This document shows positions 1,661 through 28,796 of a DNA stretch of 30,582 bases, piece after piece; the first letter of the stretch is position 1; the number at the start of each line of letters is the position of its first letter. The stretch covers positions 1 to 30,582 of IMG/VR virus record IMGVR_UViG_3300027608_002012, one strand, 5' to 3'. The translations under genes and the position numbers were made by a program. Under the pieces are notes generated by a model that had not been told where the DNA came from, searched no databases, and saw only the letters and a list, made by a program, of their open reading frames with translations. Origin of the DNA: a virus.

Positions 1661-2257
1661 ATGAAAAACAAATATGGTCTAAGTAAGGTGTGCTTTTTTT
1701 GTGAATCTAGTTTTATAACTAAACCTAGATTTATAGATTACTGTTCACAAAAATGTAAAAATCCTCTTAACAGGGGAGAATATGATCCCTGGAATAAAGG
1801 TATCAAACTTACAGATGAACAAAAAGCAAAACAAAATACAGACGGGCTCAAAAAAGGATGGGGATGGAACAAGGGCGGAACTAATGAAGCGGCACGCCAG
1901 CGTATGCTAGTCAATAATCCAAATAAAGATGGAAGGTTAAACAATCTTAGACCAAAAAATCCAATTACAGAACCCCTTAAAATATATCGTAGTAAGGTTA
2001 GGTACCATACATATAGAACTCTTAAAGAAATGAGAGCAAACGGTGAGTGGGTTCCAAAAACTGGTAAGTATAAAGACAGTTGGCAAATTGACCATATTAT
2101 TCCACACAAACAAGGTTTTGAATTAAGAATAGATCCTTCAGTACTTGGTGGAAAAAAGAATATACAATTTATTAAAGGCGAAGAAAACAGAAAAAAATGG
2201 GATAGTTATCAACCCATTGAAATAGTAGAGTCTATTACAGGAGGTAATTATGTATAG
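1661..2257 (+). CDS. HNH homing endonuclease
   Basis: A 198-aa protein with an N-terminal zinc-ribbon-like CFFC...CSQKC segment (residues 11-32), a WNKG motif typical of phage homing-endonuclease DNA-binding modules, and a C-terminal HNH core (IDHIIPHK, then NIQFI and ENRKKWD). No ribosome-binding site is seen; the late motif sits 3 nt before ATG. Its 3' end overlaps the iscU start by 8 nt and supplies the AGGAGG that iscU uses. It separates the iscU relic (1572) from the active iscU, as expected of a mobile endonuclease gene that has invaded iscU. The cleavage target is probably the iscU 5' region (inference). Confidence 0.9.
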   Translation: MKNKYGLSKVCFFCESSFITKPRFIDYCSQKCKNPLNRGEYDPWNKGIKLTDEQKAKQNTDGLKKGWGWNKGGTNEAARQRMLVNNPNKDGRLNNLRPKNPITEPLKIYRSKVRYHTYRTLKEMRANGEWVPKTGKYKDSWQIDHIIPHKQGFELRIDPSVLGGKKNIQFIKGEENRKKWDSYQPIEIVESITGGNYV

Positions 2258-2633
2258 TGCAAAAGTGTTAGATCATTATGAGAACCCTAGGAACGCAGGA
2301 AGTTTTTCCAAAGATGAAGAAAATATAGGTACGGGATTAGTAGGAGCCCCGGCGTGTGGTGACCTAATGAAACTACAAATAAGAGTAGAGAATGGCATTA
2401 TTACAGATGCACGTTTTAAAACGTATGGATGTGGATCGGCAATTGCAAGTAGTTCTCTAGTCACAGAGTGGGTTAAAGGCAAGACATTAGACGAGGCAGC
2501 AACTATTAAAAATTCAGAAATTGCTGAGGAACTTGCATTACCCCCAGTTAAGATACATTGTAGTATCTTAGCAGAAGATGCTATCAAAGCCGCAGTAGAA
2601 GATTATAAAAAGAAACATGATATCATTATCTGA
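2250..2633 (+). CDS. iscU: Fe-S cluster assembly scaffold IscU
   Basis: A 127-aa full-length IscU. It has the three cluster cysteines C36 (APACGD, with D38), C61 (YGCGSA) and C104 (KIHCS, with H103), plus LPPVK at 97-101, the site bound by the chaperone HscA. In the family, IscU accepts sulfur from the desulfurase IscS and builds [2Fe-2S] clusters. No iscS or hscA/B is in the window, so host partners are implied. A strong AGGAGG lies before the ATG. The end overlaps iscA by 17 nt. The N-terminus (MYSAKVLDHY) is coded quite differently from the relic at 1572. Confidence 0.97.
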   Translation: MYSAKVLDHYENPRNAGSFSKDEENIGTGLVGAPACGDLMKLQIRVENGIITDARFKTYGCGSAIASSSLVTEWVKGKTLDEAATIKNSEIAEELALPPVKIHCSILAEDAIKAAVEDYKKKHDIII

Positions 2634-2940
2634 CAAAGCAAAAACAAAAATAGAAACTCTATTAAAGAGTTCTCAACATGTTGGGATTCGTATAGGGGTG
2701 AAAACAACTGGTTGTAGTGGATTAGCATATGTATTAGAATATGTAAAAGAATATGTTAGTGATCCTACTACTATCAATTACGCTCAACCTAACTTTTGTG
2801 TATTAGTAGATAAAAAGCATAATGTATATTTAGAAGGTCTTACGATGGATTATGTCCGTAATGGACTAAATGAGGGGTTTGAGTTTAGCAACCCGAATGA
2901 ACGTGACCGCTGTGGATGCGGAGAAAGTTTTAGAGTATGA
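2617..2940 (+). CDS. iscA: A-type Fe-S carrier IscA
   Basis: A 107-aa protein matching IscA along its whole length. It has the three metal/cluster cysteines C33 (TGCSG), C99 and C101 (CGCGES), and the IscA-type stretches GLAYVLE and [13 protein letters not shown]-type carriers take clusters from IscU/Grx and deliver them to apo-targets. Translation is coupled: it starts inside iscU and ends with ATGA overlap into erpA. The family assignment is very safe; the exact targets are unknown. Confidence 0.96.
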
Positions 2941-3260
2941 TAACAATTACAGAATCAGCAAGTATCAAAATAGCAGATATTATTGCGGAAGAAAACAACC
3001 CTGACTTAAAGTTACGTATGTTTGTCCAGGGCGGGGGATGCTCAGGATTCAGCTATGGATTTACGTTAGAGGAGATAAAAAATGAAGATGACTTTGAATT
3101 TGAAGCTGGTGCCACAAGTGTCCTGGTCGATGCAATGTCGGCTCAATATCTTCAAGGGGCTGAGGTTGATTACGTAGAAGACTTAATGGGGGCAGAATTC
3201 AAGATAAAGAACCCCACAGCTACTAGTACTTGCGGATGCGGGAGTTCCTTTTCGGTTTAA
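2937..3260 (+). CDS. erpA: A-type Fe-S carrier ErpA
   Basis: A 107-aa second A-type carrier with C35 (GGGCSGF), C99 and C101 (CGCGSSFS). NPDLKLR, YGFT and [10 protein letters not shown] are ErpA-like rather than IscA-like. Having IscA and ErpA paralogues side by side suggests that the phage encodes both a general carrier and a [4Fe-4S] deliverer. It starts within the iscA stop (ATGA). The next late motif begins 2 nt after its stop. Confidence 0.95.
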
Positions 3261-24458: not shown

Positions 24459-24623
24459 ATGCATACGTATGACGCTATCACTGATTCAGGATTACACATC
24501 CATCTTTCAATGAGTAACGATTCCATCTGTTACATCATCGTGCATAATATTTACTCTCACAAAACTAGAATGAAATACTTTACTGATACTGAATCAGCTA
24601 TTTACTTCATACATTCATTATAA
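24459..24623 (+). CDS. Small plus-strand protein, 54 aa, probably leaderless
   Basis: Reads MHTYDAITDSGLHIHLSMSN, then DSICYIIVHNIYSHKTRMKY and a short tail, His- and Tyr-rich. It is one of only two plus-strand genes seen in the right half. It has no Shine-Dalgarno but a late motif 3 nt upstream. The 3' end overlaps the end of the radical SAM gene by 6 nt on the opposite strand. No family recognised. Confidence 0.55.
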   Translation: MHTYDAITDSGLHIHLSMSNDSICYIIVHNIYSHKTRMKYFTDTESAIYFIHSL

Positions 24624-25586
24624 TTTCCTTTTACTTATAATTATATCAGTAGAGCAATGACAATCCTTCTGTACGCATATTTCGGGTTCAGTAGGCCATT
24701 CTATTTGTTCTGGATAATTTATATTACCTATTATTCTAGTAGGTGTTCCTTGTTTACAATTGGCACGTTGTATGTCACCATCCCAATGTACAAACAAACT
24801 TTCTAATCCTATATCACACTGCCACCCATAAAAGTTATTAAGACCTGTGTTAATTATATCAATCTCCGGAACATTATATTCATTAGAATTGTCATCCCAG
24901 TAATACCGAGCTGACATTGCTACTCCCTTTTTTTGAATCAGTCTTGGATTCAGTAACCAATACATAAATCCTGAATTTTTTTGGGGATGATCTAATATCC
25001 ATTGATTTTGCTCAGGTGTATAATTTCTACCTAATGAATTACCAACACCCCAGTCTTGCAGTTGTACTGCCTCTACACCTACTCCAGTTGTTTTTGAATC
25101 AAAAGCATGATATGTTTCTACACACTTTTCCCAATATCTATTATCCATCATAACACGTACACTAGTGTGTGTATGTTTGATGGTTGCAAATACTTTCTCT
25201 TTGAAAGCAGGATCCTCAAAACTAGGATGAAAGCTAAAACACATACCATTGACATATTGAGCTATGTCCTCATAATATCTAGGTGTTCTTACCCCATTTG
25301 TAGTTATAGAAATAGTATGGCCGGCATTATAAAATATCTTAATCAATTCAGGTAGATGTGGACTCAATGTAGGCTCACCGCCGGCAATACTGAGATGTAT
25401 TTTTTCATGTCTACCTATCAATTCATAAACAAATCTTTTAGCATTTTCCCAATCATAGTGGTGATTTTTTCCATTATGCAATCCTTCAGGACAGTAACTA
25501 CATGCATTGGTACATATGTTATTGATTATCCAAGTTAATTGCATGACTTTAGGAGTTTGTGTAATAGCGATTAACTTGCGTGTCAT
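24618..25586 (-). CDS. Radical SAM enzyme
   Basis: A 322-aa protein; start at ATG 25586 with AAAGGATA upstream. C25-x3-C29-x2-C32 (CTNACSYC) binds the [4Fe-4S]-SAM cluster; GGEPTLSP is the SAM-binding GGE motif and SITTNG the next strand. C-terminal cysteines (WQCDIG, ANCKQG, ICVQKDCHC) suggest a SPASM/twitch-like auxiliary cluster, which is common in peptide-modifying enzymes. Last gene of a four-gene overlapping operon with a 2OG oxygenase. Substrate unknown. Its clusters could be served by the phage Fe-S genes. Confidence 0.93.
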   Translation of the reverse strand: MTRKLIAITQTPKVMQLTWIINNICTNACSYCPEGLHNGKNHHYDWENAKRFVYELIGRHEKIHLSIAGGEPTLSPHLPELIKIFYNAGHTISITTNGVRTPRYYEDIAQYVNGMCFSFHPSFEDPAFKEKVFATIKHTHTSVRVMMDNRYWEKCVETYHAFDSKTTGVGVEAVQLQDWGVGNSLGRNYTPEQNQWILDHPQKNSGFMYWLLNPRLIQKKGVAMSARYYWDDNSNEYNVPEIDIINTGLNNFYGWQCDIGLESLFVHWDGDIQRANCKQGTPTRIIGNINYPEQIEWPTEPEICVQKDCHCSTDIIISKRKL

Positions 25587-26938
25587 AGTATATCCTTTAC
25601 AGCTCCACATCGTTCTCTATTCCAAACATCATCAAGTGTTAATTGAATCTCTGGATTAATAATGTAAAGTTGCGCTAATATTTTCTGTTGTTGTGCGTGA
25701 CAAAAATCATGTCCAAATATCATTTGTCCTGCATCTGTGCTGAATATATTACTTAAATTCATCCAAACCTTATCATATTCTTGAATGATATCCAATAGAG
25801 GAATAGCGTCTTTGTAAAGATCAACTTGTAAGAATTTTACATGTCGTTGTTTAAAATCTTGCCAATAATGTATAAAGTTTTCTTCACTTCCAAAATGTCG
25901 AAATATTTCATTCATTCCATTTTGAAAACCCTGATCCTCTATATATTCTGAACTATGTCGTCCTATCCATGTAAAATGATTACGTTCAGGGAAGGCTCTA
26001 ATACAAGACAATATATCATTGTTAGTCCAAGTATACATGTGTTGATACCAACGTAATGCAATAGGATTAAAATCATACACCACTATCATTGCATCAGTAG
26101 TTAATCTTTGTGGGTGTTTGAACATATCAAACAACTTAAAACCACTCGCAGTATTAATAACTAAATCAAATATTCCCTTACTACGAATGTTCATTTCTTC
26201 TGAATTGAATAACCATATTTGATCTTTAACTGCAATGCTATCTTCAATCCATTTATTTTGATTCCAATTTTGTTCTAAGAATGGAGTCAATGTTTCAATA
26301 CTTTGTAAGAATTTGTCTGTGTTATCATCCGGATAAGTATAAAATTTACTCAGTCTTATTGTTTCTGATAATGCAATCACAGGCCAGTTGTTTTGCATCA
26401 ATGCTAAGGTTAATTTCCACCCTGGACTTAACTGCATCTGTTCTGAAAATATTCTAGTAGGTCTTACCCATAATGGAGTATAATCGTGATGAAAATTTTC
26501 TTCACTACGTTCAATCACCGGTAACAATTTAGGACCTCTTTCCCAATCTCCAAATTCAGGTCTACCAACTTCTACCCAGGCTTTAATATTTACAATAAAG
26601 AATTGATAGTGTAGCTCTAACCAGTGATTTGGATGACATAGAGGATGACCTGCAACACCAAATGTATTTTCAGAAATAAACTGATCAAGGTCATTGACAA
26701 AATTAAAATTACGTATTTGACAACCTGCGGCAACAACTACACAATAATCAAATTGTTCAATCGATGCTTGTTCTAATATTTCACGTATCTCATCCTTGCA
26801 AATAATTCTCAAGGGAGATGGTTGAACATTACTAAGTCTTTCAAGATAAAAAAGAGTTGCCCCTTTAGCCCTAAGATACATCTTAGTATTATTAATTTGT
26901 TTACGTTGGTTATAAACCCCATATATAATTCTATGCAT
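25583..26938 (-). CDS. Large unknown protein, 451 aa (possible GT-A-like and methyltransferase-like halves)
   Basis: Start at ATG 26938 (MHRIIYGVYNQRKQ). Residues 60-165 (FDYCVVVAAGCQI; then AGHPLCHPNHWLELHYQFFI, VNIKAWVEVGRPEFG) weakly recall nucleotide-sugar transferases. Residues 265-320 (GIFDLVINTASGFKLFDMF, MIVVYDFNPIALRWY) weakly recall a Rossmann methyltransferase. Neither assignment is proven. It overlaps the oxygenase gene by 8 nt and the radical SAM gene by 4 nt, so it acts in the same process. Confidence 0.72.
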   Translation of the reverse strand: MHRIIYGVYNQRKQINNTKMYLRAKGATLFYLERLSNVQPSPLRIICKDEIREILEQASIEQFDYCVVVAAGCQIRNFNFVNDLDQFISENTFGVAGHPLCHPNHWLELHYQFFIVNIKAWVEVGRPEFGDWERGPKLLPVIERSEENFHHDYTPLWVRPTRIFSEQMQLSPGWKLTLALMQNNWPVIALSETIRLSKFYTYPDDNTDKFLQSIETLTPFLEQNWNQNKWIEDSIAVKDQIWLFNSEEMNIRSKGIFDLVINTASGFKLFDMFKHPQRLTTDAMIVVYDFNPIALRWYQHMYTWTNNDILSCIRAFPERNHFTWIGRHSSEYIEDQGFQNGMNEIFRHFGSEENFIHYWQDFKQRHVKFLQVDLYKDAIPLLDIIQEYDKVWMNLSNIFSTDAGQMIFGHDFCHAQQQKILAQLYIINPEIQLTLDDVWNRERCGAVKDIL

Positions 26939-27608
26939 GGTTAAACCTTTCAATTGCCTGACGCTTTAATCTTTCTTCACCTGATCCATGTACAATGAAA
27001 TGGTATCGATGTTCATCTGATTGATTCCAGACCATGTGTTCATTTCCTATATCTAGCATAAAGCCATGACCTTGTTTAAAAGGTACATGACCCCATTTAC
27101 GAAAATAAAACTCACAATTGTCAGGATTATTAATAGCGATGTTCAATGGTCCAAACATTCTTCCAACGCCATCATTATGTGGCATTATATACCCACTCGC
27201 ATGTAATTTCATAATGCGTACACGCTCATATGTTTGATAACCCAGAGACTTAAGAAATTCAGTGCATGTAGGGAAGTACTCACATGCGTCTGTCCAATGA
27301 TAATTAGCTTCTTCTACAGTTTTATAACCATATTGTTCATAATTTTCTGTAGCTGTTGGATTAATTCCATGCAATGTAATTGCCGCCCAACCCTCATGAT
27401 TGTAACTATACTGGCGATCCTTTTGTCTATGCCCCACAAACATGTGGTCATTGTCAATACATTCTTTATGCATTTTTTTAAAATCTGCCGAGAATGTTAT
27501 AGGAAACCACGGCCAATCTGACCTGTCTAAACTAGTCGGCGCAGGTATTGTAGGTTGCCATTGGTTTGTTAAACTTTCTTTAATGAATTCGTTTAAAATT
27601 TCTTTCAT
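26931..27608 (-). CDS. 2-oxoglutarate/Fe(II) oxygenase (aspartyl/prolyl hydroxylase-like)
   Basis: A 225-aa protein. The facial triad H144-x-D146 (MPHNDG) and H191 (NEHMVWN), with R201 after it as 2OG anchor, fit the aspartyl/asparaginyl beta-hydroxylase-like cupin family. Such enzymes hydroxylate protein or peptide side chains with O2. Overlaps on both sides place it in the radical SAM operon. Confidence 0.87.
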   Translation of the reverse strand: MKEILNEFIKESLTNQWQPTIPAPTSLDRSDWPWFPITFSADFKKMHKECIDNDHMFVGHRQKDRQYSYNHEGWAAITLHGINPTATENYEQYGYKTVEEANYHWTDACEYFPTCTEFLKSLGYQTYERVRIMKLHASGYIMPHNDGVGRMFGPLNIAINNPDNCEFYFRKWGHVPFKQGHGFMLDIGNEHMVWNQSDEHRYHFIVHGSGEERLKRQAIERFNHA

Positions 27609-28543
27609 ATTATTTCTATATCAATAGCACGTTTAATCTTAGAAAATACTTCCAGATTCCAAGATTTTCTAAGTTCGCTGTGGGGGACTAACCAATCTTC
27701 CTTATTAGGATGAAAATTTAAAAATGTCTCATCAAGGGCTATTACACCTAAATAATATCTACCTAAAGCTAATTCTAATAAATTATCTATTGGTATCTTA
27801 GATTGTAATTCGGATGATTGCTTAATGTACCATTTCCAAAACTGTCTTTCTGTACTTTTATGAGCATTACCAGATGAGTCGCCGAAATTCAACCAGGCTT
27901 CAGAACAGAATGTTTCTTGAACCTTAATCATATTATTAGTAATTACTCTTGTGTCATCATCTTCCATGACATGTTGCCAATCTTTACCTAAAGTATTATA
28001 TCCTAAGTATAACTGACCCCAAGTAAAATCTGTATCTAAAAATAACTTGTCAGTGGGTGTTACTGGCTCTCCCCTTTCAAAGGGTTCATATTGAACCAAA
28101 CAACTAAACTGAGGGAAGGGACCAGTGTCAATAGCTGTTTCTAAAATATGTATGTACTCATTCAATTTTAGCCATGTATGATGAAATTCTTCTCCGGGAA
28201 ATAGATTAGAGTCTTTTCCCTGACGTTCGCCATATAATTCAAATTCTTCATGCAAATGATTCAAAGTGTTTGCGTTTATTTCAGCAGTGCTAGTGTAAAT
28301 CGGTAATTGCTTGTCATAATAACTATTAATCTTATCAATTATTTCATTAATAATTGACATCAATAATTCTAGATCCGTTAAAGTTTTGTTACTAATCTTT
28401 AACTCTAACGAATCATTTGTAGCCTTACGGCGGTCTACAATTGATATCCATCTGTCTAATAAACTAGTATAAGGTAGATGATACTGTAATTTTAAATGTT
28501 CACCACTTTCCAATTCAAAATGAAATATTGCAATTCTATTCAT
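27605..28543 (-). CDS. Unknown protein, 312 aa, first gene of the radical SAM operon
   Basis: Mostly helical and acidic with Trp-rich patches (DTDFTWGQLYLGYNTLGKDW, FWKWYIKQSSEL). No catalytic motif recognised. GGGAAGTG lies before ATG 28543. Its conserved neighbourhood suggests a substrate-binding or scaffolding partner (inference). Transcribed with the tRNA at 28585 from promoter 28670-28698. Confidence 0.78.
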   Translation of the reverse strand: MNRIAIFHFELESGEHLKLQYHLPYTSLLDRWISIVDRRKATNDSLELKISNKTLTDLELLMSIINEIIDKINSYYDKQLPIYTSTAEINANTLNHLHEEFELYGERQGKDSNLFPGEEFHHTWLKLNEYIHILETAIDTGPFPQFSCLVQYEPFERGEPVTPTDKLFLDTDFTWGQLYLGYNTLGKDWQHVMEDDDTRVITNNMIKVQETFCSEAWLNFGDSSGNAHKSTERQFWKWYIKQSSELQSKIPIDNLLELALGRYYLGVIALDETFLNFHPNKEDWLVPHSELRKSWNLEVFSKIKRAIDIEII

Positions 28544-28584
28544 ATAGTCACTTCCCGCTAATATAAATCCATAATTTTAAAATT

Positions 28585-28661
28585 TGGTACGCCGAGTAGG
28601 ACTTGAACCTACGACCAATGGATTATGAGTCCACTGCTCTGACCAACTGAGCTATCAGCGT
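28585..28661 (-). tRNA. tRNA with CAU anticodon, likely tRNA-Ile2 (or elongator Met)
   Basis: Loop CTCATAA, acceptor ACGCTGA/TCGGCGT, encoded CCA. The anticodon-to-T-arm section (GACTCATAATCC, TTGGTCG, GGTTCAAGTCC) resembles bacterial tRNA-Ile2, whose C34 becomes lysidine to read AUA, more than elongator Met. Confidence 0.85.
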
Positions 28662-28669
28662 ATGTACAT

Positions 28670-28698
28670 AGTATATAGCACTTGCTACATAGTGTCAA
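28670..28698 (-). promoter_or_regulatory. Early promoter for tRNA and radical SAM operon
   Basis: TTGACA (28693-28698), 17 nt, TATACT (28670-28675). Transcription would start 1-2 nt before the tRNA. Confidence 0.88.
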
Positions 28699-28704
28699 AC
28701 TATT

Positions 28705-28796
28705 TGGTACCCCCGATGAGAATCGAACTCATGTGAACCAATTATCTGTTGCTTACGGGATATAAATCCGCCGTTTTACCATTAAACTACAGGGGC
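28705..28796 (-). tRNA. Unusual tRNA: UAU anticodon with a long variable arm
   Basis: Acceptor GCCCCTG/CGGGGGT, D-stem GTTT/AAAC, loop TTTATAT (anticodon TAT, Ile AUA), T-arm ATGAG-TTCGATT-CTCAT, encoded CCA. The variable region is about 22 nt, as in Ser/Leu/Tyr tRNAs, which is not normal for Ile, and A31/C39 is mismatched. Confidence 0.72.

What the first reader, a model, noticed from the sequence alone, without database searches (positions are those of the whole stretch)
24618..28698. Four-gene radical SAM / 2OG oxygenase operon behind a tRNA
Unknown 312 aa, 2OG-Fe(II) oxygenase, unknown 451 aa and radical SAM overlap by 4-8 nt and share one early promoter with tRNA-CAU. The combination of two iron enzymes with a possible transferase suggests modification of a protein, peptide or sugar, and may be a user of the phage Fe-S machinery. 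I know of no named system with this layout.
Basis: partly seen in the sequence, partly recalled or inferred. Interest (0 to 1): 0.78.

Follow-up and report, generated by a model that had tools for sequence, protein, structure and literature searches.

The report
Phage oxygenase-transferase-radical-SAM gene module
A tight block of four phage genes makes two iron enzymes, a predicted transferase and a partner protein of unknown fold; the block recurs across several virus lineages, so it is a real chemical-modification unit, but what it modifies is not yet known.

Summary
The operon is real: A (312 aa), B (225, 2OG oxygenase), C (451), D (322, radical SAM), overlapping by 4, 8 and 4 nt, 41 nt after tRNA-CAU. 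All four recur together in other phages. Of 51 A loci, 43 have B/C next door, 20 have D/E-type radical SAMs, 12 both, none neither; B and C are fused in 32. A has no relative in 84,980 prokaryote genomes and no solved fold match. C is modelled as a GT-A-like plus a methyltransferase-like domain, but its DxD is lost. Catalytic residues of B and D are conserved; dN/dS is about 0.07-0.12. The operon is a satellite of a ~26-kb island in the same phage with nine radical SAMs, more oxygenases and a second B/C pair. Best reading: B hydroxylates a substrate, C (docked or fused) modifies it, A is the obligatory partner, D adds an optional radical step. Substrate unknown, most likely protein or peptide. 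Radical-SAM-rich phages with Fe-S genes are already published; this module and families A and C were not found in the libraries searched. New variant of a known kind.

The parts
27605..28543 (-). gene A, 312 aa: hub/partner protein of a phage-only family; conserved WG.L.LGY.TLGKD loop and N95/H98, N128/H132/E135 on two helices
   Evidence: no Pfam/PHROG/NCBIfam family above cut-off; 58 viral loci, no relative in prokaryote genomes; AlphaFold pLDDT 92.7; no PDB fold below E 0.001; ten uncharacterised phage proteins in BFVD
26931..27608 (-). gene B, 225 aa: 2-oxoglutarate/Fe(II) oxygenase, aspartyl/asparaginyl hydroxylase family; H144, D146, H191 and R201 invariant
   Evidence: PF05118 E 7e-11; alignment of 21 homologues; nearest solved relative L-proline cis-4-hydroxylase 4p7w, E 0.027
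25583..26938 (-). gene C, 451 aa: predicted two-domain transferase (GT-A-like N part, class I SAM-methyltransferase-like C part); DxD replaced by AxG
   Evidence: AlphaFold pLDDT 92.6; Foldseek COLGALT1 4e-5, LH3 6e-5, NNMT 2e-4; alignment of 25 homologues; fused to B in 32 loci
24618..25586 (-). gene D, 322 aa: radical SAM enzyme, C25-C29-C32 plus C257, C277, C304, C309, C311 (auxiliary Fe-S cluster type)
   Evidence: PF04055 E 5e-14; radical SAM cysteines invariant in 19 homologues, auxiliary cysteines kept in most
28585..28661 (-). tRNA with CAU anticodon upstream of the operon
   Evidence: ARAGORN
28670..28698 (-). candidate sigma-70-type promoter TTGACA-17-TATACT for tRNA and operon
   Evidence: 11/12 match; not tested
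2250..3260 (+). phage Fe-S assembly genes: IscU (NifU_N) 2250-2633, two A-type carriers 2617-2940 and 2937-3260; possible suppliers of clusters to D (context, not part of the operon)
   Evidence: PF01592 1e-52, PF01521 1e-16 and 4e-18

Best explanation
The operon encodes one oxidative tailoring module. B, an Asp_Arg_Hydrox-type 2OG oxygenase, hydroxylates the substrate. C, translated together with B and in most relatives covalently fused to it, acts on the same substrate as a transferase (glycosyl-type or methyl-type). A is the dedicated partner needed whichever chemistry is used, because it accompanies either B/C or the radical SAM pair; I read it as the substrate-recognition or scaffold subunit. 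D is an optional radical step that needs [4Fe-4S] clusters, perhaps helped in this phage by its own IscU/IscA genes. The substrate is most likely a protein or peptide in the infected cell (virion or host protein). Shown: co-occurrence, fusion, conserved catalytic residues of B and D, purifying selection, predicted folds. Inferred: the order of steps, the role of A, the chemistry of C, the substrate.
For: 51 of 51 A loci carry B/C (43) and/or D/E (20); A overlaps the next gene by a few nt in nearly all; B and C fused in 32. Same A-B-C-D order in L015/L033 and L016/L071. B (21 seqs) and D (19 seqs) catalytic residues kept. dN/dS about 0.07-0.12. C resembles a GT-A plus a SAM-MTase domain; a hydroxylase joined to a GT-A domain is the layout of lysyl hydroxylase LH3 (established knowledge). 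Nearest solved relative of B is a proline hydroxylase, though weak. A distant structural match of A (AUZ94948, Agrobacterium phage Atu_ph07, Foldseek E 7.5e-10) sits in an operon with SPASM-type radical SAMs, a cupin-type protein and a virion-like protein with a conserved C-terminal Cys/His tail.
Against: No substrate or precursor peptide was found in or beside the operon; no Cys-rich tail protein in the A-BC phage G003. C has lost DxD and its SAM motif I is altered, so activity is unproven. The Atu_ph07 link to A rests on Foldseek alone (TM 0.47; profile-profile probability 0.5%). A could itself be the substrate or a further enzyme. The 51 loci are not independent: 30 are one architecture at one genomic site.
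Confidence: 0.4

Rival explanations
1. Cell-surface glycan tailoring: the module hydroxylates and decorates a sugar or lipid of the host envelope (LPS O-chain type), for example to exclude competing phages.
For: E/D radical SAM pairs lie with glycosyltransferase-like, SGNH-like and nucleotide-sugar-enzyme-like genes beside tail genes (L023, L040, L106; names by eye from sequence); this is how published pelagimyophage host-recognition clusters are read (PMC7029224); PF05118 also includes the lipid A hydroxylase LpxO (own knowledge).
Against: In the largest lineage A-BC lies in a replication block with helicase, gp46/47, late sigma, a CobT-like peptidase and CobS-like/gp45/gp44 genes, not with surface genes. 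In the window it stands among tRNAs.
Confidence: 0.25
2. Small-molecule or nucleotide pathway: the module and the ~26-kb island make a modified amino acid, cofactor or DNA-base precursor.
For: The island holds PP-loop, APS-kinase/nucleotidyltransferase-like, sulfotransferase and an HMPTM-type radical SAM gene, and relative L071 an AMP-binding gene; the nearest solved relative of B acts on free proline.
Against: A-BC exists without the island enzymes next to it in 30 loci. Known DNA hypermodification gene sets were not searched for.
Confidence: 0.15
3. A itself is the substrate: a phage protein whose conserved LGYNTLGKD loop or His/Asn residues are hydroxylated by B and altered by D, so that A and its modifiers travel together.
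For: A is the only constant member, is phage-specific and has an unusually conserved loop.
Against: N183 of the loop is G in several jumbo-phage homologues; polar invariants on paired helices look as much like an active or ligand site.
Confidence: 0.12
4. Four unrelated cargo genes that merely share a promoter.
For: tRNA arrays are gene-exchange sites in phages (own knowledge); the promoter count is at chance level.
Against: Fusion, repeated adjacency at different genomic sites, purifying selection.
Confidence: 0.04

Closest known systems
T4-like environmental viral genomes with Fe-S carrier plus many radical SAM genes (TARA_ERS488813_N000010: A-type carrier, 12 radical SAMs, grx; PMC5332604)
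   Same: Large T4-like phage, Fe-S assembly gene, glutaredoxin, about ten radical SAM genes
   Different: The passages read do not describe the A-B-C(-D) module, the B-C fusion, or families A and C
Campylobacter phages CP220/CPt10 (11-12 radical SAM genes, exchangeable five-gene cassette; PMC2853527)
   Same: Exchangeable radical-SAM cassettes in a cultured phage
   Different: No 2OG oxygenase or A/C-type gene mentioned in the passages read; a glycine amidinotransferase instead
Pelagimyophage radical-SAM cassettes and core Asp/Asn beta-hydroxylase (PMC7029224)
   Same: Asp/Asn-hydroxylase-type gene plus radical SAM cassettes in T4-like phages
   Different: No partner A or transferase C described; B+C of the A-BC lineage has no match in the phage collection
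Collagen lysyl hydroxylase/glycosyltransferase (LH3, COLGALT1)
   Same: 2OG hydroxylase joined to a GT-A-like domain
   Different: B is an Asp_Arg_Hydrox-family enzyme; DxD lost in C; extra methyltransferase-like domain; no sequence match to any solved structure
NF033640 N-twitch radical SAM family (gene E of relatives) and viperin/MoaA/QueE/STM4011 radical SAMs
   Same: D matches their radical SAM core at low score
   Different: All these curated cut-offs are missed by a wide margin

Membership tests
Radical SAM superfamily (D) | CxxxCxxC binding one [4Fe-4S] and PF04055 core | tested here: met
   PF04055 53.2 bits vs cut-off 29.5; C25, C29, C32 and GGE invariant
Radical SAM superfamily (D) | SAM cleavage activity with an intact cluster | not testable with these tools
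   needs an enzyme assay
Viperin, MoaA, QueE, STM4011, NF033640 subfamilies (D) | curated NCBIfam cut-off | tested here: not met
   viperin 44 vs 180; MoaA 31 vs 231; QueE 31 vs 260; STM4011 27 vs 200; N_Twi 21 vs 170 bits
Asp_Arg_Hydrox 2OG oxygenases (B) | PF05118 above cut-off with HxD...H Fe site and Arg for 2OG | tested here: met
   42.6 vs 22.6 bits; H144/D146/H191/R201 invariant in 21 sequences
Asp_Arg_Hydrox 2OG oxygenases (B) | hydroxylation of Asp/Asn residues or another known substrate | not testable with these tools
   substrate unknown
GT-A glycosyltransferases of the COLGALT/LH3 type (C) | GT-A fold | tested here: inconclusive
   Foldseek E 4e-5 but TM 0.27, alignment runs across domains
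GT-A glycosyltransferases of the COLGALT/LH3 type (C) | DxD metal/nucleotide-sugar motif | tested here: not met
   the position, placed by sequence, reads AxG, SxG or similar in the aligned homologues; G72 invariant
Class I SAM methyltransferases (C) | Rossmann fold with glycine-rich motif I and acidic motif II | tested here: inconclusive
   NNMT match E 2e-4; invariant GFK of the loop and D289, but motif I acid not kept
RiPP-type peptide modification system | precursor peptide or substrate tail encoded with the enzymes | tested here: not met
   no Cys- or HxS-rich protein tail beside A in the loci held, apart from Atu_ph07; none in G003; precursors of other composition not excluded
RiPP-type peptide modification system | RiPP recognition element | not tested
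   no RRE-specific search; no significant Pfam hit in A or C

The most novel reading that the evidence does not exclude
Phages carry their own system for post-translational tailoring of virion proteins, in which A-fold proteins present a conserved terminal tail of a virion-like protein (CNCDCW in the window's phage, CHxSCHxSCHxxRxRR in cultured jumbo phages) to phage-encoded radical SAM, 2OG and transferase enzymes; the window operon is one module of it.
Probability: 0.1. Interest if true: 0.88.

Novelty: new variant of a known kind. Interest (0 to 1): 0.58.

Why it matters
It singles out, from phage islands rich in radical SAM and oxygenase genes that have been noted since 2010 without a function, a minimal conserved unit (A-B-C, with D optional) and two protein families with no name. 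The B-C fusion and the constant partner A tell an experimenter which proteins to express together, and related clusters in cultured phages offer testable cases, so the old question of why phages carry many radical SAM enzymes becomes approachable.

Tried and rejected
Named phages: tblastn with C, D, L051 B+C and an A homologue found nothing in 50,697 records. Prokaryote origin of A: none in GTDB contigs. Vibrio phage K566 has E-type radical SAMs but no A, B or C. PDB sequence hits to the A profile are helical-bundle matches of marginal score; the weak cyclophilin-like fold hits for A (E about 1-3) were not accepted. Cys-rich tails as a general partner of A: absent in the A-BC phage G003. L084, where A, B and C are broken, was tested for a recoded stop codon; the breaks look like frame shifts in the assembly, not recoding, so it was left out. 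Promoter scanning gives no support beyond the single good site.

Full report
OBSERVATION. On the minus strand, 28543 down to 24618, there are four ORFs of 312 (A), 225 (B), 451 (C) and 322 (D) codons that overlap by 4, 8 and 4 nt. They lie inside an 18-tRNA array, 41 nt after a tRNA with a CAU anticodon. One promoter-like site (TTGACA-17-TATACT, 11 of 12) precedes the tRNA and no terminator-like site follows on that strand, but the number of promoter-like sites in the region is what shuffles give. Family scans name B (PF05118 Asp_Arg_Hydrox, E 7e-11) and D (PF04055 radical SAM, E 5e-14); A and C match nothing significant in Pfam, PHROGs or NCBIfam.

CONSERVATION. The window is a 30.6-kb viral record. 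Six IMG/VR contigs carry the same operon at 100% best-segment identity, two of them 70-80 kb long. Beyond them, L015/L033 and L016/L071 hold A-B-C-D in the same order at 62-79% amino-acid identity; L008/L035 holds E-D-A-(B+C fused); L025/L079 holds E-A-D. With profiles, 58 viral loci encode A and 31 encode C, while A has no relative in 84,980 prokaryote genomes. In 51 loci with a full-length or nearly full-length A, 43 have B/C beside it, 20 have D or E (E is a radical SAM with an N-terminal twitch/SPASM-like domain), 12 have both and none has neither; B and C are one protein in 32. These loci are not independent: 30 of them are A-(B+C) without D/E, and those checked lie at one site of a T4-like lineage, between a CobT-like peptidase gene and a CobS-like gene, with gp46/47-, late-sigma-, gp45- and gp44-type genes around them. 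Between the window and its two close relatives dN/dS is about 0.07-0.12 where dS is not saturated.

THE PROTEINS. B keeps the H144-x-D146...H191...R201 site in all 21 homologues; its only solved relative by profile is L-proline cis-4-hydroxylase, weakly (E 0.027). D keeps C25-C29-C32 and GGE, and cysteines 257, 277, 304, 309 and 311 in most, which fits an auxiliary Fe-S cluster; it fails every subfamily cut-off tried. C is modelled with high confidence (pLDDT 92.6): Foldseek finds GT-A-type (COLGALT1, LH3) and class I methyltransferase-type (NNMT) matches at E 1e-5 to 1e-4, with low TM-scores because the alignments cross domains. Its DxD position reads AxG, SxG or similar and motif I of the methyltransferase part is altered, so neither activity is shown. 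A is modelled with pLDDT 92.7 and has no solved fold match below E 0.001; its ten structural matches are uncharacterised phage proteins. Invariant N/H/E residues sit on two helices, and the loop LGYNTLGKD is strongly conserved.

WIDER CONTEXT. The longer contig of the same phage (G002) carries a ~26-kb island at 23.8-49.6 kb with three E-type, three D-type and three other radical SAM genes, a second B-type and C-type pair, further PF05118 and TauD-like oxygenases, a sulfotransferase, PP-loop, APS-kinase-like and other enzymes. The four genes of the finding are a satellite of this island. The window also holds IscU, two IscA-type genes, glutaredoxin and rubrerythrin. IscA-type genes were found in 6 of 6 searched contigs with A, B, C and D/E in the window's arrangement families, in 0 of 3 A-BC-only contigs, and in only some others.

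MECHANISM. The fusion and the overlaps suggest that B and C meet the same substrate. The constant presence of A beside either B/C or the radical SAM pair suggests that A serves both, most simply as recognition or scaffold subunit. D would add an optional radical step. I put 0.4 on this with a protein or peptide substrate, 0.25 on a surface glycan or lipid, 0.15 on a small molecule or nucleotide precursor, 0.12 on A being the substrate. What is shown is co-occurrence, fusion, conserved residues, selection and predicted folds; the order of steps, the chemistry of C and the substrate are inference.

LEADS BEYOND THE OPERON. A structural match of A in Agrobacterium phage Atu_ph07 (AUZ94948) sits in an operon with SPASM-type radical SAM genes, a cupin-type gene and a virion-like protein ending CHSSCHASCHNSRSRR. 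The homologue in Sinorhizobium phage Phosso is 38% identical overall, yet its tail is almost the same. Burkholderia phages FLC6 and SURPRISE13 and Pseudomonas phage pPa_SNUABM_DT01 have other proteins with this tail beside a related radical SAM gene. In the window's phage a 688-aa protein encoded just before the island ends in CNCDCW plus a few residues; nearly all complete homologues end likewise, and 12 of 19 of their contigs searched carry E-type radical SAM genes. This suggests terminal tails as substrates but is not tied to A-B-C: the A-BC phage G003 has no such protein, and the link from Atu_ph07 to A is by fold only.

KNOWN OR NEW. Phages with Fe-S carriers and about a dozen radical SAM genes were reported (PMC5332604; PMC2853527), and pelagimyophages with radical-SAM cassettes and a core Asp/Asn hydroxylase (PMC7029224). 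The A-B-C(-D) unit, the B-C fusion and families A and C were not found in any library or paper searched here; literature coverage was limited to open-access papers and few searches. I file it as a new variant of a known kind.

Noticed in passing
G002:20601-22667 (L112:2601-4667), same phage as the window: 688-aa virion-like protein after a PAAR-like gene ends CNCDCWDLLTN; the CNCDCW end is kept in nearly all complete homologues although the residues before it vary.
   Followed up: partly
L114:21119-22009, L120:6415-7335, L193:7060-7620, L194:7025-7561, L195:7060-7620: Cultured jumbo phages (Atu_ph07, Phosso, SURPRISE13, pPa_SNUABM_DT01, FLC6) encode otherwise different proteins that share a C-terminal CHxSCHxSCHxxRxRR tail next to SPASM-type radical SAM and cupin genes, like a RiPP precursor.
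   Followed up: partly
L112:5800-20000 and L113:1-11700 (G002:23.8-49.6 kb): 26-kb island with nine radical SAM genes, many oxygenases and a second B/C pair, beyond the tRNA array of the window.
   Followed up: partly
L071:1-8600: Relative of the operon preceded by another B/C pair, a double PF05118 protein, a tryptophan halogenase (PF04820, 1e-87), an AMP-binding protein and an SGNH-like protein.
   Followed up: no
L108 (Vibrio phage K566, 161-168 kb): Vibrio phage with four E-type radical SAM genes and glycosyltransferase-like genes, without A, B or C.
   Followed up: partly
window 28705-28796: ARAGORN calls a 92-nt tRNA-Ile(UAU), long for that isotype; may be a tRNA with an insert or a miscall.
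   Followed up: no
L084:10262-12421: A, B and C broken into pieces in one 121-kb contig; frame changes rather than stop recoding, probably assembly errors.
   Followed up: yes
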